64,000 nucleotides of DNA. Source: JBDREC01 sp043820105 [NCBI: Pseudomonadota bacterium]. GTDB taxonomy: Bacteria; Bdellovibrionota_F; JAHFAK01. Location of the stretch: the NCBI GenBank assembly GCA_043820105.1, contig JBDREC010000065.1, positions 49,969 to 113,968 on the forward strand, read 5' to 3'. This document shows, in pieces, positions 19,694 to 62,212 of this stretch. A model generated the notes under the pieces. That model saw only the letters and a list, made by a program, of their open reading frames with translations, was not told where the DNA came from and ran no database searches. Both the position numbers and the translations under genes were made by a program. Within the stretch, counting starts at the first letter, position 1; every line of letters begins with the position of its first letter.

Positions 19694-19710
19694 ACATAAC
19701 TCCTTAATAA

Positions 19711-19810
19711 GTGGTAAGTGGTATGTGGTAAGTGGTAAGTATTTCTTGTTCACGCTGTGCGCTGTAGGCTGTACGCAACTTACAACTTACGACTTACGAC
19801 TTACGACTTA
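19711..19810. repeat. Composite heptamer array (GTGGTAA / GCTGTAC / ACGACTT)
   Basis: Four 7-bp units GTGGTAA GTGGTAT GTGGTAA GTGGTAA (19711-19738). A spacer follows, then GCTGTGC GCTGTAG GCTGTAC (19754-19774), then ACAACTT and three ACGACTT units. The last block is close to the reverse complement of the first, so the array can form a hairpin. It lies between the small gene at 19855 and mtnP. Confidence 0.8.
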
Positions 19811-21336: not shown

Positions 21337-21441
21337 GTAAGTAGTAAGTGGTAAGTTGTAAGTGATAAGTATTTTTTCTTCACGCTACATGCCATAAGCA
21401 GTTTATGACTTACAACTTACAACTTACGACTTACGACTTTA
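21336..21441. repeat. Inverted heptamer array between pheS and pheT
   Basis: The left arm GTAAGTA GTAAGTG GTAAGTT GTAAGTG ATAAGTA starts at the pheS stop codon. A spacer with CACGCTACATGCC follows, then the right arm ACTTACA ACTTACA ACTTACG ACTTACG. The arms are reverse complements with a few mismatches, so a long hairpin can form within the pheST transcript. Confidence 0.8.
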
Positions 21442-24353: not shown

Positions 24354-24388
24354 ACTTACCACTTACCACTTACCACTTACCACTTACA
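24354..24388. repeat. ACTTACC heptamer array at a stop codon
   Basis: Five head-to-tail units (ACTTACC four times, then ACTTACA) at 24354-24388. The last unit overlaps the stop codon (24384-24386) of the minus-strand pseudokinase/FGE gene. It fills the gap between two convergent genes; just before it lies an AATTAATAA-rich stretch. Confidence 0.85.
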
Positions 24389-28618: not shown

Positions 28619-28715
28619 AGTTGTAAATCGTATGTTGTAAGTGTTAACCTATTCTCACCGTACGCCGTACGCTGTAAGCAACTTACCACTTACCACTTAC
28701 CACTTACCACTCATA
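28619..28715. repeat. Composite heptamer array between rpiB and glyA
   Basis: The left block is GTTGTAA ATCGTAT GTTGTAA GTGTTAA, the middle CCGTACG CCGTACG CTGTAAG, and the right CAACTTA followed by CCACTTA units. Left and right are loosely reverse complementary. It begins immediately after the rpiB stop codon and ends about 15 bp before the glyA start. Confidence 0.8.
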
Positions 28716-47285: not shown

Positions 47286-47359
47286 CTTACCACTTACCAC
47301 TTACCACTTACCACTTACCCCTTACCACTTACCACTTACCACTTACCCCTTACCACTTA
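47286..47359. repeat. CTTACCA heptamer array, ten full units
   Basis: Units CTTACCA (with CTTACCC as units 5 and 9) run head to tail from 47286 to 47355. The partial eleventh unit CTTA contains the stop codon of hutH (47357-47359, minus strand). Unlike most arrays here it has a single arm. The regular spacing of the two CTTACCC units suggests duplication of a four- or five-unit block. Confidence 0.9.
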
Positions 47360-50001: not shown

Positions 50002-50997
50002 ATGTATAAAATTTTTTCATCTATTCAACTTAGTGTTATTTTATTTTCTATTTTAATAATCTCTTCAATTTCGGGAACATTAATAAATCAAGAAAAGGCA
50101 CTTGCATATATATATCATTCATGGTGGTATTTTTTGCTTTTAATCACATTAAGTATTAATTTAATCCTTTGCACATTAAAAAAAAGACATTATAGGATTA
50201 AATCTTTAGGATTTCTTTTAACCCATTTTGGAGTCCTGATAATTCTCCTTGGAGGCTTATTAAGTAATTTACTATGCGAAAAAGGAACTTTGTCCTTACG
50301 AGTTAAGCAAAAGTCTGACGTATTTTACATAAATAAAAAACCACAAAAACTAGGTTTCACAATTGGCTTGGATAAATTTTTCATTGAATCTTATGACAAT
50401 AATAAAATCCTAAATAATCTTGGCAGGCTTTTAATAAGAACAAAAGATAAACTAAAAGAACAAAGTTTTAATGTTGAACTTAACAAGGAATTTTCTTTTC
50501 TTGACGGCAAATATAAAGCCAAGATAACGCAATTTGAACCAAACTTATTTTTTGATATTAAAGCTAAAAAAGTAAGAAGCAAAAATAAATTGCCTGAAAA
50601 TCCGGCTATTCACGTTAGCATCATTTATAATGGTAAAAACTATAATCAATGGGTGTTTGCCAAATATCATGATTTGAAGATGGGAAAATCTAATTTAGAC
50701 ATTGATTTTGTTTATTTTTTTCAAAAGCACTCGACAAGAATCAAAGATTTTAAAAGCGACCTTTCAATTTATGAAGAAAACAAACTAATTCTGCAAAAAA
50801 CAATAGAAGTAAATGATCCCCTTGAATATAAAGGATATAAATTTTATCAATCAAATTATGATCCTAAAAACATGATGTGGTCTGGACTCCGTGTTGTAAA
50901 AGATCCAGGAACAATATTTGTATATTTAGGTTTTTTAATTCTTTGTTTGGGAATACTATTTATTTTTTACTTAAAACCTTTTCTTAGAAAAGACTAA
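50002..50997 (+). CDS. resB: Cytochrome c biogenesis protein ResB/CcsB (system II)
   Basis: 331 residues. Three N-terminal membrane helices (SSIQLSVILFSILIISSISG; SWWYFLLLITLSINLILC; FLLTHFGVLIILLGGLL), a large periplasmic domain (about 95-300) and a last helix (TIFVYLGFLILCLGIL). This is the compact ResB plan. With CcsA it moves and attaches heme to CXXCH cytochromes. CcsA follows 23 bp on. First gene of the electron-transfer locus; no clear ribosome site seen. Confidence 0.85.
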   Translation: MYKIFSSIQLSVILFSILIISSISGTLINQEKALAYIYHSWWYFLLLITLSINLILCTLKKRHYRIKSLGFLLTHFGVLIILLGGLLSNLLCEKGTLSLRVKQKSDVFYINKKPQKLGFTIGLDKFFIESYDNNKILNNLGRLLIRTKDKLKEQSFNVELNKEFSFLDGKYKAKITQFEPNLFFDIKAKKVRSKNKLPENPAIHVSIIYNGKNYNQWVFAKYHDLKMGKSNLDIDFVYFFQKHSTRIKDFKSDLSIYEENKLILQKTIEVNDPLEYKGYKFYQSNYDPKNMMWSGLRVVKDPGTIFVYLGFLILCLGILFIFYLKPFLRKD

Positions 50998-51020
50998 CAT
51001 TTTATATTAAGGAATAGCCA

Positions 51021-51827
51021 ATGGATTTTAGCACAGCAAATATTGCTTTTCTAACATATTTACTTGCAGCAATTATTTACTTTATATTTCTTCTTTCTGG
51101 CAACAACAAATCTTCTAAATTAGGATACTATATATTAATTATTGCTCTTATACTGAACTTAATCACAATTATTCAAAGATGGATACTTGTTGCATATCCA
51201 CCCTTTTCAAATATGTATGAAACAATGCTTGTTTGGGCTTGTTCAATTGCATTTTTCCAGATCATTTTTGAGAAAAAATATAATCTTTCAAGGATTGGTT
51301 TTTTCTCTTCGCTTTCAGCACTTCTTGTTTTGGCCTATGCCTCATTTTTTACTACAAAGGATATTTCTCCCCTTGTACCTGCACTGCAGAGCAATTGGCT
51401 GACAGTACATGTCATATCTTATTTCATCAGCTATGGGGCTTTAGCTTTGTCATTTATTACCGCGATATATTTTGTAATTAATAAAAATTCTAAAATAGAT
51501 TTTAGCAATATTACTTATAAATTAATATCTTTTGCATTTCCTTTTCTTACTATTGGATTAATAACCGGGTCAGTATGGGCAAAAGAAGCCTGGGGAGATT
51601 ACTGGAGTTGGGATCCAAAAGAAATGTGGTCTTTAATCACCTGGTTATTGTATTTAAATTTTCTACATCTTCCAAAAACTCTTCCAAATGTTTTACGAAA
51701 GTTAAAGATTGATTTAAAATACAACAAATTGGTTATTAATATTTTTGCAATCATTGGCTTCTTATGTGTTGTCTTTACATATATTGGTGTTAACTATTTA
51801 TTATCTGGTTTACATTCATATGCATAA
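51021..51827 (+). CDS. ccsA: Cytochrome c biogenesis protein CcsA/ResC (system II heme handling)
   Basis: 268 residues, eight hydrophobic segments. The WWD-type heme loop is WGDYWSWDPKEMWS. Conserved histidines flank it (LTVHVISYF, NFLHLPK, GLHSYA). It presents heme on the periplasmic side with ResB. AAGGA eight bases before the ATG. Its direct linkage to seven multiheme cytochrome genes, several with CX3CH or CX4CH sites, suggests that it serves them. Confidence 0.9.
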   Translation: MDFSTANIAFLTYLLAAIIYFIFLLSGNNKSSKLGYYILIIALILNLITIIQRWILVAYPPFSNMYETMLVWACSIAFFQIIFEKKYNLSRIGFFSSLSALLVLAYASFFTTKDISPLVPALQSNWLTVHVISYFISYGALALSFITAIYFVINKNSKIDFSNITYKLISFAFPFLTIGLITGSVWAKEAWGDYWSWDPKEMWSLITWLLYLNFLHLPKTLPNVLRKLKIDLKYNKLVINIFAIIGFLCVVFTYIGVNYLLSGLHSYA

Positions 51828-51840
51828 TATTAGGTGTTTA

Positions 51841-53028
51841 ATGCTTATCAATAGGAATTTATTAAAATTAATAAAACGATCTAAAATCAATATTTGTAGC
51901 CTTATTGTTTTGCTTTTTTTTCTTAGCATTTTCACTTTTGAAAATGGTTTTTGTGCCCAGAATAAATCTACTAATAATTCAGGTTGTCTAATGTGCCATA
52001 GATACCCTGCCCTTGGCAGATATAACGATAAGGGTGATATAGACATATATTATGTAGATGATCAGAATTTTGAAAAATCTGTCCATGGCATTTTAAATTG
52101 CACAGATTGCCATAAAGATATTACTAAAATCCCTCATGTTAATGCCAAGAAAGTTGATTGTTCAACAAAATGCCACCTTAAAGAACCATCAACTCAAAAA
52201 GAATTTTCTCATATAAATATGCATAATAAATTTGAAAGTAGTGTTCATAGCAAAATGCGAAATGGAAATTTAAAAGCAAACTACGAAGACCTACCAAGCT
52301 GCAAATATTGTCATAACAATCGAAAATTACAGGGCATGATAGATACTAAAAACTATAGAGATGAAGCCTTTTCTCAAGAGATCCTTACAAGGTGCAAAGG
52401 ATGCCATACAAAACAGGGATGGGCCGACAGATTCTTAAAACATTTATCAGATCGCACTTTAAGGAAAAGGTCCCAGTCAGAAATTGTATTTTTATGCGCC
52501 TCTTGCCATGAAGACCAGGAAAAAATGTCAAGACATGGTCTTGAATCTGTCGCCACATTTAAGGATACTTTTCATTGGACGCTAGTAAAATATAATGTGC
52601 AAAATGCTCCTGATTGCATGAGTTGTCACATTCCCCGGGGATATTCAACTCATGATATAAAATTTAAAAATAATGATATCTCACCTATTAACAAAAATAA
52701 TATAGTCAACACATGTTCAAATCAAGGTGGCATGCAAACTTGCCATCCAGACGCTACAGAATATTTCGCAAAAGGTCGTGTACATGCTTATGGTGAAAAA
52801 GCAAAATTATTAAGCAATAATGAGGTTCAATCAGAAGATTCTATTCTTTTTGAAAGAGCCAAAAATGAACTTTCAAAAGATGATATTCTTAAATATAAGA
52901 TTTTAAAGTTTCTAACTTTAATTTATAAGTTATTTATTGCTATGGTGATCTTCCCAATGTTTGTACATCAAGTATTAGATTATAATAGAATTAAAATAAA
53001 TATTAAAAAAACAAAAAAAAGGACTTGA
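51841..53028 (+). CDS. Membrane-anchored octaheme-type c cytochrome
   Basis: 395 residues. A signal sequence (hydrophobic 19-35, ending NGFCAQ) is followed by a heme-binding region with CLMCH, CTDCH, CSTKCH (CX3CH), CKYCH, CKGCH, CASCH and CMSCH. A further CSNQGGMQTCH fits CX8CH in a place where relatives have CGKCH. A C-terminal membrane helix (FLTLIYKLFIAMVIFPMFVHQ) anchors it to the inner membrane. The ATG at 51841 has AGGTG upstream and starts 13 bp after ccsA. It is followed by the b-type cytochrome, so the two probably form a quinol-linked electron entry or exit module. Confidence 0.85.
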   Translation: MLINRNLLKLIKRSKINICSLIVLLFFLSIFTFENGFCAQNKSTNNSGCLMCHRYPALGRYNDKGDIDIYYVDDQNFEKSVHGILNCTDCHKDITKIPHVNAKKVDCSTKCHLKEPSTQKEFSHINMHNKFESSVHSKMRNGNLKANYEDLPSCKYCHNNRKLQGMIDTKNYRDEAFSQEILTRCKGCHTKQGWADRFLKHLSDRTLRKRSQSEIVFLCASCHEDQEKMSRHGLESVATFKDTFHWTLVKYNVQNAPDCMSCHIPRGYSTHDIKFKNNDISPINKNNIVNTCSNQGGMQTCHPDATEYFAKGRVHAYGEKAKLLSNNEVQSEDSILFERAKNELSKDDILKYKILKFLTLIYKLFIAMVIFPMFVHQVLDYNRIKINIKKTKKRT

Positions 53029-53057
53029 GTAAAAACTCAACAGTTAGGGTTAAAACA

Positions 53058-53783
53058 ATGGCAACAAATATTGATAAAAAGCACAATGAAAAAATATACT
53101 TTATAAGATTAAACCTAAATGAACGAATACAACATGGAATATTTTTTAGTTGTTTTTTTACGTTAGCCTTAACTGGTTTTATGATTTATATTCCTGAAGA
53201 TATTGTTGCTTTATTTGGAAAGTTTGGTGAGACAATCTTTTTATACAGAAGCCTTGTACATAGAATTGCTGCAGTGATAATGGTATTGGTATGTGCTTAT
53301 CATTTGTTTTATTTACTTTTTAAAAAAACCGGTCGCTTATTTTTAGTCGATATGTTTCCAAGATTCAAAGATGTTTTCGATATTAAAGATAATTTGCTTT
53401 ATTACATTGGATTCAAAAAAGAAGCGCCTGAATTTGACAGGTTTTCATACAAACAAAAAGCTGAATACGGTGCTTTAATAGCTGGAAACACTTTAATGAC
53501 ATTAAGTGGATTAATTCTATGGTTTGAAGCTTATTGGTATAAATTTATTATTGATATAGCAAAAGTGGTTCATGGAATGGAAGCTGTCCTAGCTTGTCTT
53601 GCTATTATTATTTGGCATTTATATGAAGTCCATCTTAAACCAAGAAAATTTCCAATTGATAGTCTTTGGATAACAGGAATCATTGATGAAGAAGAAATGA
53701 AAGAAGAATATCCTATGCACTATAAAAGGATTATGAAAGATCCGAAATTAAAGGATATATTTATATATAAACAAAAAAATTAA
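53058..53783 (+). CDS. Di-heme b-type cytochrome, formate dehydrogenase-gamma/hydrogenase cytb family
   Basis: 241 residues with four membrane helices. Candidate heme b ligands are the histidines in ERIQHGIFF, VHRIAAVIMVLVCAYHLF and VVHGMEAV...IIWHLYEVH. The family exchanges electrons between quinone and periplasmic partners. The ATG at 53058 has TTAGGG upstream; a TTG 11 codons earlier overlaps the preceding stop and has its ribosome site too close. It lies between two membrane-attached c cytochromes. Confidence 0.82.
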   Translation: MATNIDKKHNEKIYFIRLNLNERIQHGIFFSCFFTLALTGFMIYIPEDIVALFGKFGETIFLYRSLVHRIAAVIMVLVCAYHLFYLLFKKTGRLFLVDMFPRFKDVFDIKDNLLYYIGFKKEAPEFDRFSYKQKAEYGALIAGNTLMTLSGLILWFEAYWYKFIIDIAKVVHGMEAVLACLAIIIWHLYEVHLKPRKFPIDSLWITGIIDEEEMKEEYPMHYKRIMKDPKLKDIFIYKQKN

Positions 53784-53806
53784 TTACTTTGAAAAAAGAA
53801 CCAATT

Positions 53807-54616
53807 ATGATGAAATTTGTTAACTTAATATTAGTAATCTTTGAACGAACAATAGTAAATTTGATAAAATTAATATATCTATCTCCCATATTACTTTTTG
53901 CCTTATTTCTACTGGTGCATCTATATTATCCAGAATTAATCTACAAAAACAAGGGTGTTTCCTCTAATAAAACAGATCGTAGTGAAGACATGTTAAAAAG
54001 AATAAAGGCCGACAAAAAGCCAATATCAAGATATCATTTTCATATTGTTGATGAATACATCCCAACCATGGCCAAAAGCAAACCTTCATGCTACTCTTGT
54101 CATGGAACATATGCTCATTATAAAGATAAAAAAACTGGATCCGTTCTTAACATGCATTCTGGATATATAGATTGCACAGTTTGCCATGTAAAGAAACAAG
54201 ACATGCCAGATGAAAGATTCAGAATTCATTGGGTTGATAATGCTTCCTCAGAAACTATAAAAAAACCAATTGGACAGTTTGGAAAATATTCAGGAAAAAT
54301 TTCTCTATTTCATTATGAAAATAACTGGCTAGAAAAATATGAACCTATAGATTCAATTTTAATAAATAAATTTTTACGCTCTATTGATAAAAGTGATGAT
54401 TATAAAAAAGGGAAAAGAAAAGATGTACTTCACCAAAAAATATCAAAAAAAGCTGTGTCTTGCAAAGAGTGTCATAATAAAGACGGGTATCTAAATTTTA
54501 CTGTGCTTGGGTATTCTGAAAACAGAATAAATTATCTGTCTTCTTCTGAATTATTTGGTATTTTTACAAACTATGAAGTCTTTTATTTGCCTGCATTAAT
54601 TAAATCAGACATATAA
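53807..54616 (+). CDS. Membrane-anchored triheme c cytochrome
   Basis: 269 residues from ATG 53807 (a TTG at 53789 is also possible; neither has a good ribosome site). An N-terminal membrane anchor (LSPILLFALFLLVHLYY) is followed by CYSCHG, CTVCH and CKECH. The C-terminal 45 residues after the last heme are conserved in the cytochrome at 62331. Third member of the ccsA-cyt-cytb-cyt run. It ends four bases before the convergent diheme lipoprotein gene. Confidence 0.78.
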   Translation: MMKFVNLILVIFERTIVNLIKLIYLSPILLFALFLLVHLYYPELIYKNKGVSSNKTDRSEDMLKRIKADKKPISRYHFHIVDEYIPTMAKSKPSCYSCHGTYAHYKDKKTGSVLNMHSGYIDCTVCHVKKQDMPDERFRIHWVDNASSETIKKPIGQFGKYSGKISLFHYENNWLEKYEPIDSILINKFLRSIDKSDDYKKGKRKDVLHQKISKKAVSCKECHNKDGYLNFTVLGYSENRINYLSSSELFGIFTNYEVFYLPALIKSDI

Positions 54617-54620
54617 TTTT

Positions 54621-54914
54621 TTATTCAGAAGCAGTGTCAGAGCCATTGCTTCCATGACATCTTGTGCAACTTGAAGATCCGGCTGAAACAACAAATGTCC
54701 TTGTTGACTCATTGTCTAAATGTATGTTTTCAATATGATGACACATTATACATTCACTATACCCCCAACCTCCAATGTGATTTTCTTTTATTAAAATGAT
54801 GCCATTTGCTTCTAAGTCTGAATATTCTTCTCCCTGATTTTCTGAACCACAAGAAAAAAGAAATATAATGATTATGCTAAAAAAAATAGCTATCTTTATT
54901 ATATTTCTATTCAT
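54621..54914 (-). CDS. Small diheme c-type lipoprotein
   Basis: 97 residues. The signal ends in a lipobox (FLFSC at about residue 17), then two heme sites, CIMCH and CTRCH. The ATG at 54914 has AGAGGTG upstream and overlaps the end of the hexaheme gene by 8 bp; the longer open frame upstream is an out-of-phase shadow of that gene. Probably a periplasmic or outer-membrane electron carrier of the locus. Confidence 0.78.
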   Translation of the reverse strand: MNRNIIKIAIFFSIIIIFLFSCGSENQGEEYSDLEANGIILIKENHIGGWGYSECIMCHHIENIHLDNESTRTFVVSAGSSSCTRCHGSNGSDTASE

Positions 54915-55452
54915 AATTAACACCTCTTGAATTATGACAGTCAGTACAATAGTTTGTTTTATGACACCTAATACATTTATAAGGATTTTTTCTAACTTTA
55001 ATTGAGTGATAAAATATAAAATTATTATTATGATATTTTCTTTTAACCTTATCACGTTTACTATGACAAGCAGTACAATCACTTGTCTTATGGCACTTAT
55101 TGCATCTACCTGCATGTAGTTGTGCCTTATTAGCGTGTTTACTTTTCCAGAAATAATTATGATCTCGGGGAATAACCTTGGCTATTCCAGTTTCATGACA
55201 GCTTATACATTTCGTTTCGAGCTTAATTTCTTTTCGATTTTTATGTGGAATATGGCAAAAGCTACAGTGAATATTTTTTTTCTTAAAGGAGCTTAAGTGA
55301 TTTTTGTGAGAAAAGAGATCTTTTAATTTAACAACATCATCACCATATAAAAAATGTACAAGAAAGCTTAAAAAAACAAACAAAATTAGAGTAATTAAAC
55401 CCTTTTGCGTTAAATTAGTTAATAAATTATTTCCAAACATTAATTTTTTCAT
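54907..55452 (-). CDS. Hexaheme c-type cytochrome with N-terminal membrane anchor
   Basis: 181 residues from ATG 55452. One hydrophobic segment (LITLILFVFLSFLVHFLYG) is either signal or anchor. Six heme sites follow: CSFCH, CISCH, CNKCH, CTACH, CIRCH, CTDCH, with class III-like spacing and several free histidines for bis-His ligation. A TTG start six codons earlier cannot be excluded. It lies between the barrel gene and the diheme lipoprotein in one minus-strand operon. Confidence 0.8.
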   Translation of the reverse strand: MKKLMFGNNLLTNLTQKGLITLILFVFLSFLVHFLYGDDVVKLKDLFSHKNHLSSFKKKNIHCSFCHIPHKNRKEIKLETKCISCHETGIAKVIPRDHNYFWKSKHANKAQLHAGRCNKCHKTSDCTACHSKRDKVKRKYHNNNFIFYHSIKVRKNPYKCIRCHKTNYCTDCHNSRGVNYE

Positions 55453-55473
55453 CAAATAAATTTTTTCCAAAAG

Positions 55474-56685
55474 TTAAAAATAAACATAATTTAAAGCAAA
55501 GCCTGCCCTATAATCATGGTTTATTTCATCATTAGAGTTATATTCAAAATAAAGCTTAAGATTCATATTTTTTGTAAATTTTAAATTAAGCCATGAATGA
55601 GTAGCGAGGCTAATTCCAGATTCACTTGTAATCTTTTCATAATCTATTAATGACACTATTAAATTAAAGCTTAAGTTTTGTAATAATTCAGCTGATTCAA
55701 TGATATTAGCTCCGTGCCCTGTTCCCCCATAGCTGTTTAAATAAAAGTATGAAAGGGTTGTTGTAAACTTATCAATGAGCCTTGGAAAGCAAACACCAGA
55801 TTCTAGATTATAACCATCTGTGCTAACATTTTCAAAATAATCATATTGGGAAAAGGAAACTTCTTCAAACAAAGTAATAAATGAAAATGGACTAAAATCA
55901 GCTGATGCAAAGGCCTCAACAATCGGTCCATCTGCAAAAAAGGATAAAATGGAATCTGCATCAAGACCTTGTTTCGATAAATCATATCTGCCAACACCTA
56001 CATCTAACTTCAAATTATCAAGAGGCAAAAATTCTATTCCTCCACTTAGATTTTCTAAAGTATTATTTGATACTTCATAAATAGAATTAAAATAAAAATT
56101 GGGAAAACTGTAAATCATAAATTGATAATCACTTGCCAAAGCAAAGGTATTTGTAAATTCACCATTTAAGTCATTTTCAAATTCGTATTGGAAAGAGGAT
56201 GATAAATTATCTAATCTGTTAATTATAAAGCGTGTCCCTAAAACAAAATTACCATTTTCAAAATTATCTTCCTCAACGAATCTTTTAACTCCAGTAAAAA
56301 AATTAAATTCAATATTTTTATTAGGCTTATAATCAAGCAAAACTCCATCAAAGGTTTTATATTCAAATGTATCAGCTTGGCTTATCCTGCCAAGCTTAAC
56401 GCTGATTTGATTTAAAAGTTTAGACAATTCAAGAGAGCTATTATAAAGATTGAAGGAATAATCACCTAAAGCAGGATCTCCATAAACATCAAGATCTAAT
56501 TTTGTATTTAAAAAACCCTCATAGTTAGTGGATTCAAGAAACAAATATTGTCTGAGGGGAATATTAAACTTGCTTGTTTCATCAGACCTGAGCTGGGAAA
56601 TAAATTCAGTATTAATATAAAGTGGATATAAATTTAGCGCTAGTAATATAAAAATAAAATAACTTAGAGAGATTAGCTTTTTCAT
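55474..56685 (-). CDS. Predicted outer-membrane beta-barrel of the cytochrome locus
   Basis: 403 residues. After a signal sequence (ISLSYFIFILLALNLYPLY) the protein alternates amphipathic strands and short polar turns over its whole length (YNSSLELSKLLNQISVKLGR, LGTRFIINRL, YNLESGVCF...). It ends in NYVYF with a terminal aromatic residue, as outer-membrane barrels do. Repeated acidic turns are present. No heme sites. By position it could be the porin through which the cytochromes pass electrons (compare MtrB/PioB, Geobacter porin-cytochrome complexes), although I see no direct sequence match to those. Confidence 0.68.
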   Translation of the reverse strand: MKKLISLSYFIFILLALNLYPLYINTEFISQLRSDETSKFNIPLRQYLFLESTNYEGFLNTKLDLDVYGDPALGDYSFNLYNSSLELSKLLNQISVKLGRISQADTFEYKTFDGVLLDYKPNKNIEFNFFTGVKRFVEEDNFENGNFVLGTRFIINRLDNLSSSFQYEFENDLNGEFTNTFALASDYQFMIYSFPNFYFNSIYEVSNNTLENLSGGIEFLPLDNLKLDVGVGRYDLSKQGLDADSILSFFADGPIVEAFASADFSPFSFITLFEEVSFSQYDYFENVSTDGYNLESGVCFPRLIDKFTTTLSYFYLNSYGGTGHGANIIESAELLQNLSFNLIVSLIDYEKITSESGISLATHSWLNLKFTKNMNLKLYFEYNSNDEINHDYRAGFALNYVYF

Positions 56686-56717
56686 ATCATCCAAAAAGTC
56701 TTATTAAATTTAGCGTA

Positions 56718-59267
56718 CTAATCACATGGCATTGGTAGCTGATGACAATCATGGCAAGTTGGAAATCCAGCGTCAAAATCTGAATGCATATGGCAATCTG
56801 TACAATCTCTGCCAGCAATATATGCATAACAACCATCATAATCTGTGTGTGCAGAACCACTGCCATCATTTCTAAAATATTGTGTTGTTGTATGACAAAC
56901 CTCACAAATACCGTCATAAACTTCATCCCCATCTGCAAAAGAATTTGGACCATCATTATCAAAAAATTTCACTTCCCTGCCATCAATTACAGTTCGTATA
57001 TATTTTCCATAAGTTGCTCCATAATCTCTTTCTTGCTCCTGTATATGTGGCTCATGACAATCAATACAATAAGCTAAAACAGAAACCCGATCATATACTT
57101 TATGATTAGCTGCTTGCCCCTCACTATGACAATCATCACAGTCTTCAATATCGCCCTCTCCCACATGACAACTTGTACAATAAATACTGTTTGCAGAATC
57201 ATGTGGAGGATCTTGATAAGCTGGAACATCAGTATGGCACTCAGCACTATTACATGAAACAATTTCTTCATCAACAGCGTAATCAAGCTCATGACATCCT
57301 ATACAGGCATCAATTGTATTTGCCTCTAACACTGTACTTCCATGATTGGCCCATTGATCCCAATTATCTGCATGAGGATATGTAGAATGACATGTATAGC
57401 ATGAAATCCCAGATTCTCCTCCCAGGTAATCCTCACCATGGCAAACTGTTGCACAATCTGAAGGATTATTCTCTAAAACGTAATCCCCATGTTCATCGCC
57501 ATCCTCCCAATCTTCATTATGAGGATAACCAGGATGACATGTATAGCACGAAACTCCGCTTTGACCACCCTCATTGTCTTCTCCATGACATTCTGTTGCA
57601 CAATTATCAGGACCTGCCTCAATTGCATATGCTCCATGATTTTCACTCAAAACCCAATTTGGGTCATGAGGATATGAAGAATGACAAGATGAACAACTGG
57701 TTTCGGATTCTCCTCCTTCAAAGTCTTCTCCATGACAGTTGGTTGCACAGGAAGAAATTCCATTATCATCAACATATGAACCATGATTGGCGATATTTTC
57801 CCAATTATCAGAATGAGGATATAATTCATGACAGGAATAGCAAGAAGTCTCCGACTCCCCTCCATCATAAGCTTCGCCATGACATACACCAGCACAATTT
57901 GACAAATCATTTTGCACTACATAAACACCATGACTGCTTGAAGCATCCCAACCTTCTGCATGTGGATAAGAAACATGACAACTTGAACAGGAAATACCTG
58001 AATCCCCGCCTGTGAAATCTTCTCCATGACAATTGCTTGCACAAGAGTCATTACCATTTTCATCAACATAACTTCCATGCGCTGAATATTCATCCCAACC
58101 ATCTGAATGTGGATAAAGCTCATGACATGAGTGACATGATATTTCAGATTCACCACCTTCAAGCTCATCACCATGACAATCTGAAGCACATGATGAAAGT
58201 TCATTCTCTATTGCGTACAAACCATGACTACTTGCTTCACTCCATCCCCCCTCATGTGGATATATATCGTGACAACTAGAGCATGATATATTAGTATCTC
58301 CACCTGACAAATCATCACCATGACAGTCTGTAGCACACGTTGAGCTTTCATTCTCATCAACATAAGATCCATGTCCAATTATATCTTCCCAATCTTCTTC
58401 ATGTGGATATAGTTCATGGCAAGAATAGCAAGACACATCTGATTCACCGCCCGTAAAATCCTCTCCATGACATGCAGAAGAACAAAAGAAATTCCCATTT
58501 TCTAATACATAAAACCCGTGATTTTCTTTATCTTCCCAATTATCATCATGTGGATAACCAGTATGACAATAGTTACAAGAAATTCCTGAATCGCCTCCTG
58601 CCAAATCTTCTCCGTGACAATTTGAGGCACAACTTGAAGTTGTATTTTCAATAATAAATTGTCCATGTTCATTGGCTCTTGACCATGTTTTGCCATGAGG
58701 ATAATTTAAATGACAACTATAACAGGAGGTCTCTGACTCTCCCCCACCATAATCACTTCCATGACAACTTGTTGAACATGAAGATGTGCTATTTTCAATT
58801 ACATATTCTCCATGATTTGCATATTGAAACCAATTTGAATCATGTGGAAAAATACTGTGACAACTAGTACATGATAAATTAGAATCTCCACCGCTTAAAT
58901 CTTCACCATGGCACTTTGTAGCACATGAACTAGAGGTATTTTCATCAACATACCTTCCATGATTCTCAATATCAGACCAGCTACCTTCATGCGGATACAA
59001 AGCATGACAAGAGAAGCAGGATATTCCTGAACTACCACCTGTAAAATCTGCTCCATGACAATCTCCGGTTAAACAAGATCCTGAATTATTTTCTATTATA
59101 TATTTTCCATGAATATCAGGGTTTCCCCAATCAGTAGAAAAATGAGAATAAAATACTTCACTTGCTTCACTAGCAGATTCTTGGCTTGTATCGACTATTG
59201 ACCTTTCACAGCCAATAAAGACAAAAAATGCTGATAAAATTGTTAATAATATTATTGATTTATTCAT
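56718..59267 (-). CDS. Giant repeat multiheme c-type cytochrome lipoprotein (32 candidate hemes)
   Basis: 849 residues. A lipoprotein signal has lipid Cys20 (VFIGC). Residues 53-641 are twelve tandem modules of 49 residues (the first has 50), consensus HGxYVxEN..SSCAxxCHGED..GG.S..SC.SCH..YPH...W. Each has one CX3CH (CX4CH in module 1) and one CX2CH. A decayed thirteenth unit (CIGCH, CNSAECH) and a C-terminal part with CTSCH, CDDCH, CIDCH, CEVCH, CTDCH and CHDCH follow: 32 sites in all (19 CX2CH, 11 CX3CH, 2 CX4CH). Every module has exactly four His: two in heme motifs, two free. The start at 59267 is fixed by a promoter whose -10 lies upstream of it. Likely a long electron wire on the outer membrane (inference). 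Confidence 0.88.
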   Translation of the reverse strand: MNKSIILLTILSAFFVFIGCERSIVDTSQESASEASEVFYSHFSTDWGNPDIHGKYIIENNSGSCLTGDCHGADFTGGSSGISCFSCHALYPHEGSWSDIENHGRYVDENTSSSCATKCHGEDLSGGDSNLSCTSCHSIFPHDSNWFQYANHGEYVIENSTSSCSTSCHGSDYGGGESETSCYSCHLNYPHGKTWSRANEHGQFIIENTTSSCASNCHGEDLAGGDSGISCNYCHTGYPHDDNWEDKENHGFYVLENGNFFCSSACHGEDFTGGESDVSCYSCHELYPHEEDWEDIIGHGSYVDENESSTCATDCHGDDLSGGDTNISCSSCHDIYPHEGGWSEASSHGLYAIENELSSCASDCHGDELEGGESEISCHSCHELYPHSDGWDEYSAHGSYVDENGNDSCASNCHGEDFTGGDSGISCSSCHVSYPHAEGWDASSSHGVYVVQNDLSNCAGVCHGEAYDGGESETSCYSCHELYPHSDNWENIANHGSYVDDNGISSCATNCHGEDFEGGESETSCSSCHSSYPHDPNWVLSENHGAYAIEAGPDNCATECHGEDNEGGQSGVSCYTCHPGYPHNEDWEDGDEHGDYVLENNPSDCATVCHGEDYLGGESGISCYTCHSTYPHADNWDQWANHGSTVLEANTIDACIGCHELDYAVDEEIVSCNSAECHTDVPAYQDPPHDSANSIYCTSCHVGEGDIEDCDDCHSEGQAANHKVYDRVSVLAYCIDCHEPHIQEQERDYGATYGKYIRTVIDGREVKFFDNDGPNSFADGDEVYDGICEVCHTTTQYFRNDGSGSAHTDYDGCYAYIAGRDCTDCHMHSDFDAGFPTCHDCHQLPMPCD
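57345..59111 (-). repeat. Twelve tandem 147-bp coding repeats within the giant cytochrome
   Basis: The DNA encoding the 49-residue modules repeats with a 147-bp period; the first unit has one extra codon. Neighbouring odd and even units differ in a partly alternating way: YVDEN/YVDDN start units 2, 6, 8 and 10, and CYSCHELYPH appears in units 5 and 9. This suggests growth by duplication of 294-bp pairs. It is inside the CDS and in frame. Confidence 0.9.
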
Positions 59268-59346: not shown

Positions 59347-61275
59347 TTAATCCTTAATGGATGAAACCGGGTGACAAACAGTACATAGACCAGATGAAAA
59401 TTCAGTTGATTGTCGCAAAAAACTGTTATTTATATCACCCTCACGATTATTTCTGTAATCCCTAATCATTCCATTGATTTTTGAATCCCAAATGTGGCTT
59501 GAATGACAAGTCAAACAAGTCATCATTCCCCCTTTTGTCTTATTTCCTAATTCGTCAAAAAGTGGTACTGTTTTAAAAATAGTGTTTATATTTTTAGCAA
59601 GCTTGGTATCCTTTAACGGCTTATCTACCATGTGAACATCGCTCATATGAATTGCTTTCTTTGAGGCAATTCCGATTTTATTATGACATTCCAAACATAA
59701 CATATTAAGATAGTTTTTATTTGAGGGAATAAATCTAGCCCATAAAAGCTTTGATTGAGCATTGTGGGGAACATGACAAGCACTACAAGGACCTGAATCT
59801 TTCACAGTTTTTTGTAAAATATTTTTATCTGCTGCTGCGGTAAGCATAAGGTTATGGTCAGAGCTTAAAACTTGCTTTTTATCAGCATGACATTCAAGAC
59901 AAAGAGCCGAATCCTGATTATTTGAAATTCTCAGGAAACTATTTGAGGCATCACCATCAATTGTTTTATATCCTTTGTTCATATCATCTTTTTCATCCCA
60001 TTGATGAACATTATGGCAACTTGCACATTGAATTTTTCCTTTTGAATCTTTCTTCATACCTTGCGAAAATAAGGGGAGTTTAATTTTATTATTAATATTT
60101 TTGGTTAATACAATATCCAGTTTGTGTGAATTCATCCCTATTTTTTTTATATTCTTTAATTGCTTATTCTGATGGCAGATTAAACATTCCTGATTATGAC
60201 TATTTTCATTATTATAGGCAAAAGCCCAAAGTTTTGACTCCCCATGGTAATGAGGAAGATGGCAAGCGCTGCATGGGCCAGCTTCTTTAACCCTATTTTT
60301 ATTAATATTCATCCAGGAAGGCATTGAAATGCTCAAATCATGTTTTGTACCTATAATTGCTTTCTGATTTTTATGACAAGTAATGCACATCTGAGATTTA
60401 CTGTTGTCAGATAATAAAAGCTTTTTGTTTTTTATTTTATGATTTCTATGACAGCTTATACAAAGCAGCTGATTATTTTCTGTGAAAACAGCACCTTTTG
60501 TTTTTAGATTTTTAACAACTTCATCCATGTTCTTTTCATTCTTTAAATTTGAAAAACCTGGTTTTTCTTCTTTCTTAACTTGCCTTAATTCTGTATGACA
60601 CCTTATGCATAATTCATTATCCATTTTATCTTTTATTAAAAGGTTTGAATATGAAGGGCCATGGGTAACATGACATGATTCACAATAAATAAAACTACTC
60701 TTGTTTTTTCGTTGTAATTCATCTTGAAGATGTTGATTGGCAACTTTTTTATTTGTTTTTCCAGTCGGATGATTCATTTTAGGCTCAGATTCTTTTTTAT
60801 GACACATTTTGCACATTTGGGAATTAATATTTGAAACTCGCAAGAAAATGGTTTCCTTATTAATATTTTTGCCTGGTATGACATGAGGTGTGTGACAGGT
60901 AGCACATTGCACCCTACCTTCTGAATCCAGAGGAAAGGAATTCGGAATCTCCATACTTTCAGGTGGCGCTTTATCAACCTTATGCCCAGATAAACTTGAA
61001 AGCTTTAACCTTGAATCAACAACACTTCCATCATGACAGGATTGACACATCTCTTGACTTGATACAACTTTTTCAGCCTGAAATTCAACTAGATCAGTCC
61101 CTTTTGAATAGATAAAAAAAGTATCCAGCCATCTATAATGACATATGGCGCATTCTTTGGCTGAATTTCTAGAGATATTAGGATCTTCAGAGCCATGCAA
61201 GGATAAAGTAAGCCAAGATAATACTACATAAAAAAGAATTAAAATTTGTATGTTTGCTGTTATTTTTTTATGCAT
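59347..61275 (-). CDS. 16-heme c-type cytochrome with doubled CXXCH modules
   Basis: 642 residues with a signal peptide (ILILFYVVLSWLTLSLHGSED). It has sixteen CX2CH sites: CAICH, CQSCH, CATCH, CKMCH, CESCH, CIRCH, CISCH, CITCH, CSACH, CLICH, CASCH, CLECH, CSACH, CLECH, CLTCH, CTVCH. The last eight form two copies of a four-heme module that begins GPCSACH and ends NSFLR.S...LC..CH. Typical of the doubled-CXXCH family. Periplasmic or secreted; no lipobox. ACAGGAA precedes the ATG. It starts 10 bp after the NHL gene. Confidence 0.88.
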   Translation of the reverse strand: MHKKITANIQILILFYVVLSWLTLSLHGSEDPNISRNSAKECAICHYRWLDTFFIYSKGTDLVEFQAEKVVSSQEMCQSCHDGSVVDSRLKLSSLSGHKVDKAPPESMEIPNSFPLDSEGRVQCATCHTPHVIPGKNINKETIFLRVSNINSQMCKMCHKKESEPKMNHPTGKTNKKVANQHLQDELQRKNKSSFIYCESCHVTHGPSYSNLLIKDKMDNELCIRCHTELRQVKKEEKPGFSNLKNEKNMDEVVKNLKTKGAVFTENNQLLCISCHRNHKIKNKKLLLSDNSKSQMCITCHKNQKAIIGTKHDLSISMPSWMNINKNRVKEAGPCSACHLPHYHGESKLWAFAYNNENSHNQECLICHQNKQLKNIKKIGMNSHKLDIVLTKNINNKIKLPLFSQGMKKDSKGKIQCASCHNVHQWDEKDDMNKGYKTIDGDASNSFLRISNNQDSALCLECHADKKQVLSSDHNLMLTAAADKNILQKTVKDSGPCSACHVPHNAQSKLLWARFIPSNKNYLNMLCLECHNKIGIASKKAIHMSDVHMVDKPLKDTKLAKNINTIFKTVPLFDELGNKTKGGMMTCLTCHSSHIWDSKINGMIRDYRNNREGDINNSFLRQSTEFSSGLCTVCHPVSSIKD

Positions 61276-61285
61276 TTCCTGTTTT

Positions 61286-62212
61286 TCACATTATTTTATA
61301 AACACTAACTTTGTTCATAAGCATTTCAACAACTAAAAGTCTACCGGTTTTATCGACAAAAATGCCTGTAGGGGTTTTAAATTTTTTAGTCGCGTTTTCA
61401 GATTTATCTGCAATCACTGATAGAAAGTTTCCTGATTTATCAAAGATCTGAATAACACCCATATAGGAATCACTTACAAAAATTCTCTTTTCTGCATCAA
61501 TAGCTACACCCTTGGGTCTGTACAATTGGCCCTTTTCCACCCCCCATTGGCCAACCAAATTTAAAAATTTCCCAGTAGTTGAAATCGCTTGAATTCTGGT
61601 ATTAATGACGTCTGATATAAATAAGGAAGAAATTCCATCGTCAGCAATTAAAAAGGGATGATTGAATTGTAATTCTTGGGCGCCTGTGGTTCCAAATTGA
61701 TTTAGGAGTTTTCGTGTTTTTTTATCATAAACAAAAACCTTGTTATTGTCATTATCAACAACAAATATATTATTTTTAACAACTGCAATATCTGTAGGAT
61801 CAGACGGTGATTCACTACTAGCTGGAATATTTATACTATACAAAAAGCTTCCGTCGGATTTAAATGTCTGAATTCTGTGATTTCCAGAATCAGCAATATA
61901 TACAGCTCCATTATCATCAATATCAATTCCTAGTGGCATTTCAAATTGTCCTTTTTCTGAGCCAGGTCCTCCAAAAAACCCAATATATTTTCCACTATTA
62001 TTAAAAATTTTAACCTGACTATTTACACCATCAACAATATAAATATTCCCAACAGAAGAGACTGAAACATCACTAGGATTGTTAAATTCATGTCTAATAT
62101 CAAACAGATGCTTTACATGCGTATATGCAATACAATAAGAATATTCAAAATATGAAATTATAGTAATAAAATTTATTAAAATAATTATTATTGAAAGTTT
62201 GCTTTTTTTCAC
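61286..62212 (-). CDS. Exported NHL-repeat beta-propeller protein
   Basis: 308 residues. A signal sequence (LSIIIILINFITIISYFEYSYC) is followed by six blades of the NHL type (PSDVSVSSVGNIYIVDGVNSQVKIF; PLGIDIDDNGAVYIADSGNHRIQTF; PKGVAIDAEKRIFVSDS; PTGIFVDKTGRLLVVE and others). Such propellers bind partners and are often coded beside multiheme cytochromes in metal-reducing deltaproteobacteria. GTG start with GGAG nine bases upstream. It heads the minus-strand run and is divergent from the cytochrome at 62331. Confidence 0.83.
   Translation of the reverse strand: MKKSKLSIIIILINFITIISYFEYSYCIAYTHVKHLFDIRHEFNNPSDVSVSSVGNIYIVDGVNSQVKIFNNSGKYIGFFGGPGSEKGQFEMPLGIDIDDNGAVYIADSGNHRIQTFKSDGSFLYSINIPASSESPSDPTDIAVVKNNIFVVDNDNNKVFVYDKKTRKLLNQFGTTGAQELQFNHPFLIADDGISSLFISDVINTRIQAISTTGKFLNLVGQWGVEKGQLYRPKGVAIDAEKRIFVSDSYMGVIQIFDKSGNFLSVIADKSENATKKFKTPTGIFVDKTGRLLVVEMLMNKVSVYKIM

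What the first reader, a model, noticed from the sequence alone, without database searches (positions are those of the whole stretch)
56718..59267. 32-heme lipoprotein cytochrome made of twelve 49-residue di-heme modules alternating CX3CH and CX2CH
Twelve in-phase modules each carry one CX3CH and one CX2CH site, flanked by CX4CH sites at both ends of the series (CLTGDCH and CNSAECH). I count 19 CX2CH, 11 CX3CH and 2 CX4CH. Multiheme cytochromes are well known, but a strictly repeated di-heme module with a non-standard motif at every second site is unusual. It has a lipobox, so it is probably on the outer membrane. It may act as a modular, length-adjustable conductor or form a filament.
Basis: partly seen in the sequence, partly recalled or inferred. 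Interest (0 to 1): 0.88.

Follow-up and report, generated by a model that had tools for sequence, protein, structure and literature searches.

The report
Modular 32-heme outer-membrane electron-conduit cytochrome
A little-known bacterium encodes a lipid-anchored protein built from a dozen copies of a two-heme unit, next to genes for an outer-membrane pore and a small heme protein, so it is most likely the outward-facing end of a molecular wire that carries electrons through the cell's outer membrane.

Summary
An 849-aa protein (59267..56718, minus) has 32 heme motifs (19 CX2CH, 11 CX3CH, 2 CX4CH) with a 49-residue period. One correction: 11 of its 12 units carry CX3CH; the first carries CX4CH there. 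Each CX3CH unit also has two extra histidines, fit to be distal ligands. Of 336 distinct modules the first site is CX2CH in 262, CX3CH in 69, CX4CH in 5, so CX3CH is a one-residue-longer form of a normal heme site. The gene lies in an apparent operon with a predicted 22-strand beta-barrel, a hexaheme cytochrome and a diheme lipoprotein. That barrel family lies nearby in 9 of 16 fetched neighbourhoods, co-occurs with the module in 144 genomes of one phylum (10 both, 3 module only, 2 barrel only, 129 neither), and in one genome is fused to a 12-heme module array. Best reading: surface lipoprotein of a porin-cytochrome conduit, the same kind of system as OmbB-OmaB-OmcB, OetABI and PCC3 (homology not tested). 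Sidedness is inferred, a filament is unsupported, and heme distances could not be measured. Real; a new variant of a known kind.

The parts
56718..59267 (-). 32-heme lipoprotein cytochrome: signal/lipobox, 12 di-heme units of 49 aa, a degenerate unit and a C-terminal part with irregular heme spacing
57246..59156 (-). the repeat array (residues 38 to 674): 12 regular units and a degenerate thirteenth
   Evidence: spacing and alignment
55474..56694 (-). outer-membrane beta-barrel, 22 predicted strands; likely start ATG 56685
   Evidence: AlphaFold2 model mean pLDDT 77.8; fold matches are outer-membrane barrels; start
54907..55470 (-). hexaheme c-type cytochrome, basic, hydrophobic N-terminus, likely periplasmic (location inferred)
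   Evidence: 6 CX2CH, precursor pI 9.7; Cytochrom_c3_2 above cut-off; members found in relatives have 7 to 19 motifs
54621..54914 (-). small diheme lipoprotein (FLFSC lipobox seen directly)
   Evidence: start; similar ORFs beside the module cytochrome in L131, L133, L134, L135, L142
59347..61275 (-). 16-heme cytochrome with paired CXXCH domains, upstream in the same apparent operon
61286..62212 (-). NHL-repeat beta-propeller, first gene of the apparent operon
   Evidence: PF01436, E 9.2e-28
51745..53028 (+). heptaheme cytochrome (one CX3CH) with a C-terminal hydrophobic segment; true start probably downstream
53025..53783 (+). b-type cytochrome, cytochrome b561 / formate dehydrogenase gamma-like; likely quinone partner (inferred)
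   Evidence: PF01292, E 9.9e-14
53789..54616 (+). triheme cytochrome with a hydrophobic N-terminal segment
62277..63275 (+). hexaheme cytochrome (one CX4CH)
50002..50997 (+). ResB, System II cytochrome c biogenesis
   Evidence: PF05140, E 4.5e-29
51021..51827 (+). CcsA/ResC-type cytochrome c assembly protein
   Evidence: PF01578, E 6.5e-45

Best explanation
The protein is the surface lipoprotein cytochrome of a porin-cytochrome electron conduit. Shown by sequence: 32 heme motifs, a lipobox, a repeating two-heme unit with two conserved extra histidines, and a predicted barrel, a hexaheme cytochrome and a diheme lipoprotein encoded immediately downstream. Inferred: the hexaheme protein sits in or under the barrel and passes electrons across the outer membrane to the 32-heme protein, whose repeats form an extended chain of bis-histidine hemes that lengthens the conduit's reach to an outside acceptor or donor. 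CX3CH sites are inferred to be ordinary heme sites with one extra residue in the loop. Electron direction (out to minerals or partners, or in from them) is not known. The b-type, heptaheme and triheme cytochromes encoded on the other strand next door would link this to the quinone pool (inferred).
For: Motifs, period and lipobox. Each of the 11 CX3CH units has two non-motif His (YPH and HG); one has a third His inside CHSCH. Of 336 distinct modules from the window and loci, all 336 have a Cys two, three or four residues before the first CH, and 330 have a His 6 to 20 residues upstream of it. Where relatives mix motif types, module length alternates 49 and 48 residues (L133), so the extra residue lies in the motif itself. 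The barrel is modelled with 22 strands and matches outer-membrane barrels. Barrel family beside the module cytochrome in 9 of 16 fetched neighbourhoods (three of the nine gave profile seeds), with the small cytochrome family in 8 of those 9; the ninth, L136, ends at a contig edge. A four-seed barrel profile hits 38 of 119 module loci at E <= 1.2e-5 and one ORF in the window. Barrel in 16 of 17 genomes searched; the one without it, G247, also gave no module match. In 144 genomes of one phylum: 10 both, 3 module only, 2 barrel only, 129 neither, Fisher P = 2.4e-11. In G005 one 728-aa ORF joins an N-terminal array with 12 CX2CH motifs to the barrel domain (barrel profile E 3.4e-75 over residues 339-720; module profile E 1.1e-49). 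CX3CH and CX4CH heme loading is shown in MmcA (PMC11024163).
Against: No localisation, heme content or electron transfer has been measured. In the G005 fusion the module array is N-terminal to the barrel, a place that would normally be periplasmic or inside the pore, so a module array need not be extracellular. The five-unit structure model failed (mean pLDDT 51.5), so heme spacing is untested. A 22-strand barrel is narrower than MtrB (26 strands, recalled) and fit of the hexaheme protein is untested. Of the 17 genomes all but G247 were chosen because they hold the module, and 8 supplied rows of the barrel alignment A5. The Fisher test ignores relatedness of the genomes. In 7 of 16 neighbourhoods no barrel member was found nearby, though each of those 7 genomes has one elsewhere. 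Of the ten genomes with both, five have them on different contigs and, of the five on one contig, four have them on opposite strands 4.6 to 5.9 kb apart, so not in one operon. The small-cytochrome profile may score partly on CXXCH density: four of its eight neighbourhood hits are its own seeds and it also hits one module cytochrome weakly (L143).
Confidence: 0.64

Rival explanations
1. It works on the periplasmic side: the lipid anchor holds it on the inner face of the outer membrane and the heme chain reaches toward the inner membrane or feeds the barrel from below.
For: In G005 a module array is fused N-terminal to the barrel, a place normally periplasmic or in the pore. PCC3 periplasmic cytochromes with 21 or more hemes are proposed to span the periplasm (PMC5566968 and PMC10734462, passages). 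The lipobox alone does not give sidedness.
Against: A separate basic hexaheme protein and a 16-heme protein in the same apparent operon fit the periplasmic role; the G005 array is shorter, CX2CH only and has no lipobox seen, so it may stand in for the hexaheme partner instead.
Confidence: 0.15
2. It polymerises into, or is itself, a free extracellular nanowire like OmcS, OmcE or OmcZ filaments.
For: Long heme chain and a repeating unit; an NHL propeller is encoded in the operon, as NHL units are in Uet clusters (PMC10734462).
Against: It has a lipobox, a single long chain and a barrel partner. The whole protein has no phmmer match in solved-structure sequences up to E 1; a module profile gives only partial matches to other heme proteins (nitrite reductases, NrfH, OmcA and others), best E 5.9e-4.
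Confidence: 0.08
3. It mainly stores electrons (a capacitor) and is not a directional conductor.
For: A large heme number; a capacitor role is suggested for PCC3 cytochromes (PMC10734462).
Against: Co-occurrence with a barrel and a small cytochrome and the fusion point to a trans-membrane path. Storage and conduction do not exclude each other.
Confidence: 0.07
4. The CX3CH sites do not carry heme, so the protein has about 21 hemes and the CX3CH loops are structural.
For: No heme count was measured; heme lyases can be motif-specific (PMC12285233, passages).
Against: The homologous position is CX2CH in 262 of 336 modules and every module keeps the Cys pair and CH, with the upstream His in 330. 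CX3CH is heme-loaded in archaeal MmcA.
Confidence: 0.06

Closest known systems
OmbB-OmaB-OmcB, ExtABCD and similar conduits of Geobacter (PMC6148476, passages)
   Same: The three defining kinds of part are encoded together: multiheme periplasmic-type cytochrome, outer-membrane barrel, redox lipoprotein.
   Different: No homology to these proteins was tested; the lipoprotein here is a regular tandem array with 32 motifs.
PCC3 (PMC5566968 and PMC10734462, passages)
   Same: Porin plus an extracellular cytochrome with repeats, median 34 motifs, number varying 10 to 35 in Gallionellaceae.
   Different: PCC3 periplasmic cytochromes have a median of 21 motifs; here the barrel neighbour has 6 (a 16-heme protein is also encoded).
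OetABI conduit of ANME-partner sulfate reducers (PMC10553843, passages)
   Same: Periplasmic cytochrome, barrel, extracellular lipoprotein cytochrome.
   Different: Sequence relation not tested; regular 49-aa units are not described in the passages read.
PF09698 / GSu_C4xC__C2xCH (Geobacter CxxxxCH...CXXCH motif)
   Same: Alternation of a longer motif with CXXCH; relative L107 passes the cut-off near its C-terminus.
   Different: The window protein is not listed for this model at E up to 10; here the longer motif is mostly CX3CH.
MmcA of Methanosarcina acetivorans (PMC11024163, passages)
   Same: CX3CH and CX4CH sites that carry heme.
   Different: Archaeal heptaheme protein; no homology tested or claimed.
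Cyc2, fused cytochrome-porin (PMC10734462, passages)
   Same: The G005 relative also fuses heme domain and barrel in one chain.
   Different: Cyc2 has one heme, the G005 fusion 12 motifs; the window proteins are separate; homology not tested.

Membership tests
Trans-outer-membrane electron conduit, as defined in PMC6148476 | (i) multiheme periplasmic c-type cytochrome | tested here: met
   Hexaheme protein 55470..54907 with a hydrophobic N-terminus; its periplasmic location is inferred.
Trans-outer-membrane electron conduit, as defined in PMC6148476 | (ii) integral outer-membrane protein with transmembrane beta-sheets | tested here: met
   22-strand model, mean pLDDT 77.8, matching outer-membrane barrels.
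Trans-outer-membrane electron conduit, as defined in PMC6148476 | (iii) outer-membrane lipoprotein with redox cofactors | tested here: met
   Lipobox and 32 heme motifs read from sequence; no lipoprotein predictor was run and the membrane is inferred.
Trans-outer-membrane electron conduit, as defined in PMC6148476 | the parts form a complex that moves electrons across the membrane | not testable with these tools
   Needs biochemistry; the G005 fusion only suggests contact.
PCC3 | extracellular cytochrome with many motifs and sequence repeats, plus a porin | tested here: met
   extracellular location inferred.
PCC3 | periplasmic cytochrome with a large number of motifs (median 21) | tested here: inconclusive
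   The barrel neighbour has 6; a 16-motif protein lies upstream.
PCC3 | five-helix inner-membrane protein with two HX13H motifs; porin homology | not tested
   PCC3 sequences were not at hand.
OmcS/OmcE/OmcZ-type filament | sequence relation to a solved filament cytochrome | tested here: inconclusive
   No phmmer match; partial profile matches to other heme proteins only.
OmcS/OmcE/OmcZ-type filament | polymerises through inter-subunit contacts | not testable with these tools
   Needs microscopy.
PF09698 GSu_C4xC__C2xCH | profile match over the curated cut-off | tested here: not met
   Not listed at E up to 10 for the window protein.
PF02085 class III cytochrome c | profile match over the curated cut-off | tested here: not met
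   19.4 bits against a cut-off of 22.9, in the C-terminal part (residues 689-747).
Mtrc-MtrF II-IV (Pfam) and DmsE-type decaheme (NCBIfam) | profile match over the curated cut-off | tested here: not met
   No match listed for the 32-heme protein in Pfam or NCBIfam at E up to 0.1.

The most novel reading that the evidence does not exclude
A so far unnamed, widely spread class of porin-cytochrome conduit: a distinctive 22-strand barrel family tied to a cytochrome made of a standard two-heme brick, either as a separate long surface lipoprotein or fused to the barrel, where evolution sets the reach or capacity of the wire by the number of bricks and switches the brick between CX2CH and CX3CH forms, with a possible four-heme super-unit (98 residues).
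Probability: 0.4. Interest if true: 0.62.

Novelty: new variant of a known kind. Interest (0 to 1): 0.46.

Why it matters
If right, the system gives a naturally modular electron wire whose length varies among relatives, so reach and current could be tested against module number. The linked barrel family could also serve as a sequence marker for this kind of conduit; its profile already hits module loci whose record titles name KSB1, Caldithrix and Calditrichota, Oligoflexia and Bdellovibrio, Acidobacteria and other mostly uncultured groups.

Tried and rejected
First genome-contig scan with alignment A2 found no relative because its two patterns were narrow; the degenerate DNA pattern then worked.

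A search of 198 genomes of the phylum of G014 with the whole protein at E <= 1e-20 gave 0 of 198. It missed even G014, the genome that holds module locus L020, so it shows nothing. tblastn in plasmids: no match.

AlphaFold2 on five units with 20 rows: mean pLDDT 51.5. Not used for distances or fold search. A first 38-row alignment slipped by whole units and was dropped.

Idea of a dedicated heme lyase for CX3CH, because ResB and a CcsA-type protein are encoded nearby: weakened. PF01578 genes also lie on the module contig in some relatives, but several are open frames of over 600 aa that look CcmF-like (recalled size rule), and ResB was found in only 11 of 22 genomes.

Length change by recent slippage: rejected for this copy. 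A 98-residue super-period is weak (permutation P about 0.013, one test).

In one search, modules within 40 residues of the start of a frame, or with a stop or unknown residue in the 40 residues upstream, were dropped before counting, and identical 72-residue windows were merged; the number dropped was not printed. The loci came from a scan for this very pattern, so the count describes modules of this type, not all cytochromes.

each searched 144 genomes 'drawn evenly'; I take them to be the same draw as because every matching handle is in that list, but the tool does not print all non-matching rows.

Fold rows for MtrB-type barrels were not seen among the 50 shown; this excludes nothing.

Literature: searches showed no description of this unit in the listings and passages I saw. 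The library lacks most subscription papers. PMC11475568 was read in parts 1 and 2 of 3; the other opened papers as passages only.

Full report
Observation. The ORF at 59267..56718 (minus) encodes 849 residues with 32 heme motifs: 19 CX2CH, 11 CX3CH and 2 CX4CH. Motifs alternate at 17 and 32 residues, a period of 49. 23 motif pairs are exactly 49 apart, against at most 1 in 2000 shuffles. There are 12 regular units; the first has CX4CH where the other 11 have CX3CH, and a thirteenth is degenerate. The consensus is CH..YPH...W.....HG.Yv.eN..ssCat.CHGeD..GGeS.iSC.s. Every CX3CH unit has two histidines outside the motifs (YPH and HG), one per heme; one unit has a further His inside CHSCH. The protein is very acidic (pI 4.3; 154 D+E against 16 K+R). 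Units are on average 50% identical in protein and 58% in DNA; neighbours are no more alike than units two or four apart, and no tandem array is reported in the gene. The array therefore looks old.

Is the unit known? The protein reaches no Pfam or NCBIfam cut-off: the best Pfam rows are DUF7654 (E 1.3e-4) and Cytochrom_CIII (E 1.4e-3), both below their cut-offs. It has no phmmer match among solved-structure sequences. Record titles include candidate division KSB1, Calditrichota, Ignavibacteriae, Bacteroidetes, Deltaproteobacteria, Oligoflexia, Bdellovibrio, Nitrospirae, Acidobacteria and Myxococcota. Open frames in these loci have up to 39 motifs (L008). L107 has 11 pattern-matching units 51 to 53 residues apart, with 28 CX2CH motifs and one CX4CH; L102 has alternating CX3CH and CX2CH with 49-residue spacing like the window.

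What is CX3CH? I collected 336 distinct modules by a pattern that did not require the first Cys. All 336 have it: 262 CX2CH, 69 CX3CH, 5 CX4CH. An upstream His lies 6 to 20 residues before it in 330 (256 of 262, 69 of 69, 5 of 5). In L133 the motif string begins 2232223222 and unit lengths alternate 49, 48, 49, 48, 49. The longer unit is the one with the extra residue in the motif. So CX3CH is best read as a heme site with a one-residue-longer loop. Heme loading of CX3CH and CX4CH is shown by LC-MS/MS in MmcA (PMC11024163, passages). It was not tested for this protein.

Neighbourhood. On the minus strand the order is NHL propeller (62212..61286), 16-heme cytochrome (61275..59347), the 32-heme protein, a 406-aa protein (56694..55474), a hexaheme cytochrome (55470..54907) and a small diheme lipoprotein (54914..54621), with gaps of under 80 bases or a short overlap; that they form one operon is inferred from this. 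The 406-aa protein is modelled as a signal helix and 22 beta-strands, mean pLDDT 77.8. Fold comparison finds outer-membrane barrels: ushers, alginate exporter and porins by Foldseek, and SusC/TonB-dependent receptors and others by VIA-align, top Z 18.9, rmsd 4.6, 354 aligned. A plus-strand set next door holds ResB and a CcsA-type assembly protein, a heptaheme cytochrome, a b561-like cytochrome and a triheme cytochrome. Its order recalls CbcBA, an inner-membrane complex that works with the quinone pool (PMC10553843 and PMC12307469, passages), but homology was not tested.

Comparative test. In 16 neighbourhoods fetched around module genes, the barrel family is present in 9: L131, L133, L134, L135, L136, L138, L139, L142, L145 (L133, L134 and L135 gave seeds). 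The small cytochrome family is in 8 of these (four gave seeds); L136 ends at the contig edge. The other 7 showed none nearby, some being short contigs, but each of those 7 genomes has a barrel match elsewhere. A four-seed barrel profile hits 38 of 119 module loci at E <= 1.2e-5 and a single ORF in the window; three seeds are themselves among the 119. In 17 genomes, 16 have the barrel, 9 of them with a single match; G247 has neither barrel nor module. All but G247 were chosen for the module and 8 supplied alignment rows. A fairer test is 144 genomes drawn from the phylum of G240, none of which supplied rows to the barrel alignment as far as one search lists them: 13 have the module at E <= 1e-8 and 12 have the barrel at E <= 1e-5. 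Ten have both, 3 module only (G270, G221, G383), 2 barrel only (G288, G335), 129 neither; Fisher P = 2.4e-11, ignoring relatedness. In five of the ten (G240, G266, G319, G340, G355) a module match and the barrel lie on one contig with 4.4 to 5.9 kb between them, in four of these on opposite strands; in the other five they are on different contigs.

Fusion. In G005 (the genome of loci L005 and L067, titled only 'bacterium isolate Modern_marine.mb.68') one uninterrupted 728-aa ORF on contig C343 carries 12 CX2CH motifs in module-like repeats, then the barrel domain (barrel profile residues 339-720, E 3.4e-75; module profile E 1.1e-49). This is direct evidence that a module array and this barrel can work as one unit. 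An N-terminal domain before a barrel would normally lie in the periplasm or the pore, so the fused array may replace the small cytochrome and not the surface lipoprotein. Sidedness of the window protein therefore rests on its lipobox and on the separate hexaheme protein.

Mechanism. The three parts that define an outer-membrane electron conduit (PMC6148476, passages) are encoded together. I infer that the basic hexaheme protein (pI 9.7) carries electrons through or to the barrel and hands them to the acidic 32-heme lipoprotein, whose repeated two-heme units extend the chain outward. Direction, partner and substrate are unknown. Heme distances could not be measured because the five-unit model was poor (mean pLDDT 51.5).

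Known relatives. By design it is like OmbB-OmaB-OmcB, OetABI and above all PCC3, whose extracellular cytochromes have a median of 34 motifs and contain repeats, and vary from 10 to 35 motifs in one family (PMC5566968, PMC10734462; passages). I did not test homology with any of them, so I do not file it as a member of any named one.

Source. No genome is held for the window. Its RpoD scores best, at 64% identity, with G247 among the genomes searched. G247 is one of two genomes held in the phylum of the record titled Deltaproteobacteria bacterium RIFOXYA12_FULL_61_11 (L077, genome G013); G013 has a 30-motif module protein with a barrel beside it. The phylum of the window is not established.

Noticed in passing
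19708-19810, 21337-21439, 24354-24387, 28681-28711, 47286-47359: Several arrays of a 7-base repeat (ACTTACC / GTAAGTG type), up to 10.6 copies, some in facing pairs. Origin unknown.
   Followed up: no
51745-53028: The neighbouring heptaheme cytochrome also has one CX3CH site.
   Followed up: no
50002-51827: System II cytochrome c biogenesis genes (ResB, CcsA type) sit right beside the cytochrome cluster.
   Followed up: partly
L147 323-2506: Single ORF fusing a 12-heme module array to the barrel family domain in G005, like a many-heme version of a fused cytochrome-porin.
   Followed up: partly
L139 8999-10235 and 11223-12609: In G001 both the module cytochrome and the barrel gene are split over two frames; assembly error or decay.
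   Followed up: no
L141 6754-12284 and L140 1945-6950: In two module loci (titles: Calditrichaeota bacterium CLD2; bacterium Dive96_bin3.88) a heme-free ORF of about 655 aa and a small 3 to 5-heme ORF precede the module cytochrome; no Pfam match for the large ORF. Possibly a second barrel type.
   Followed up: no
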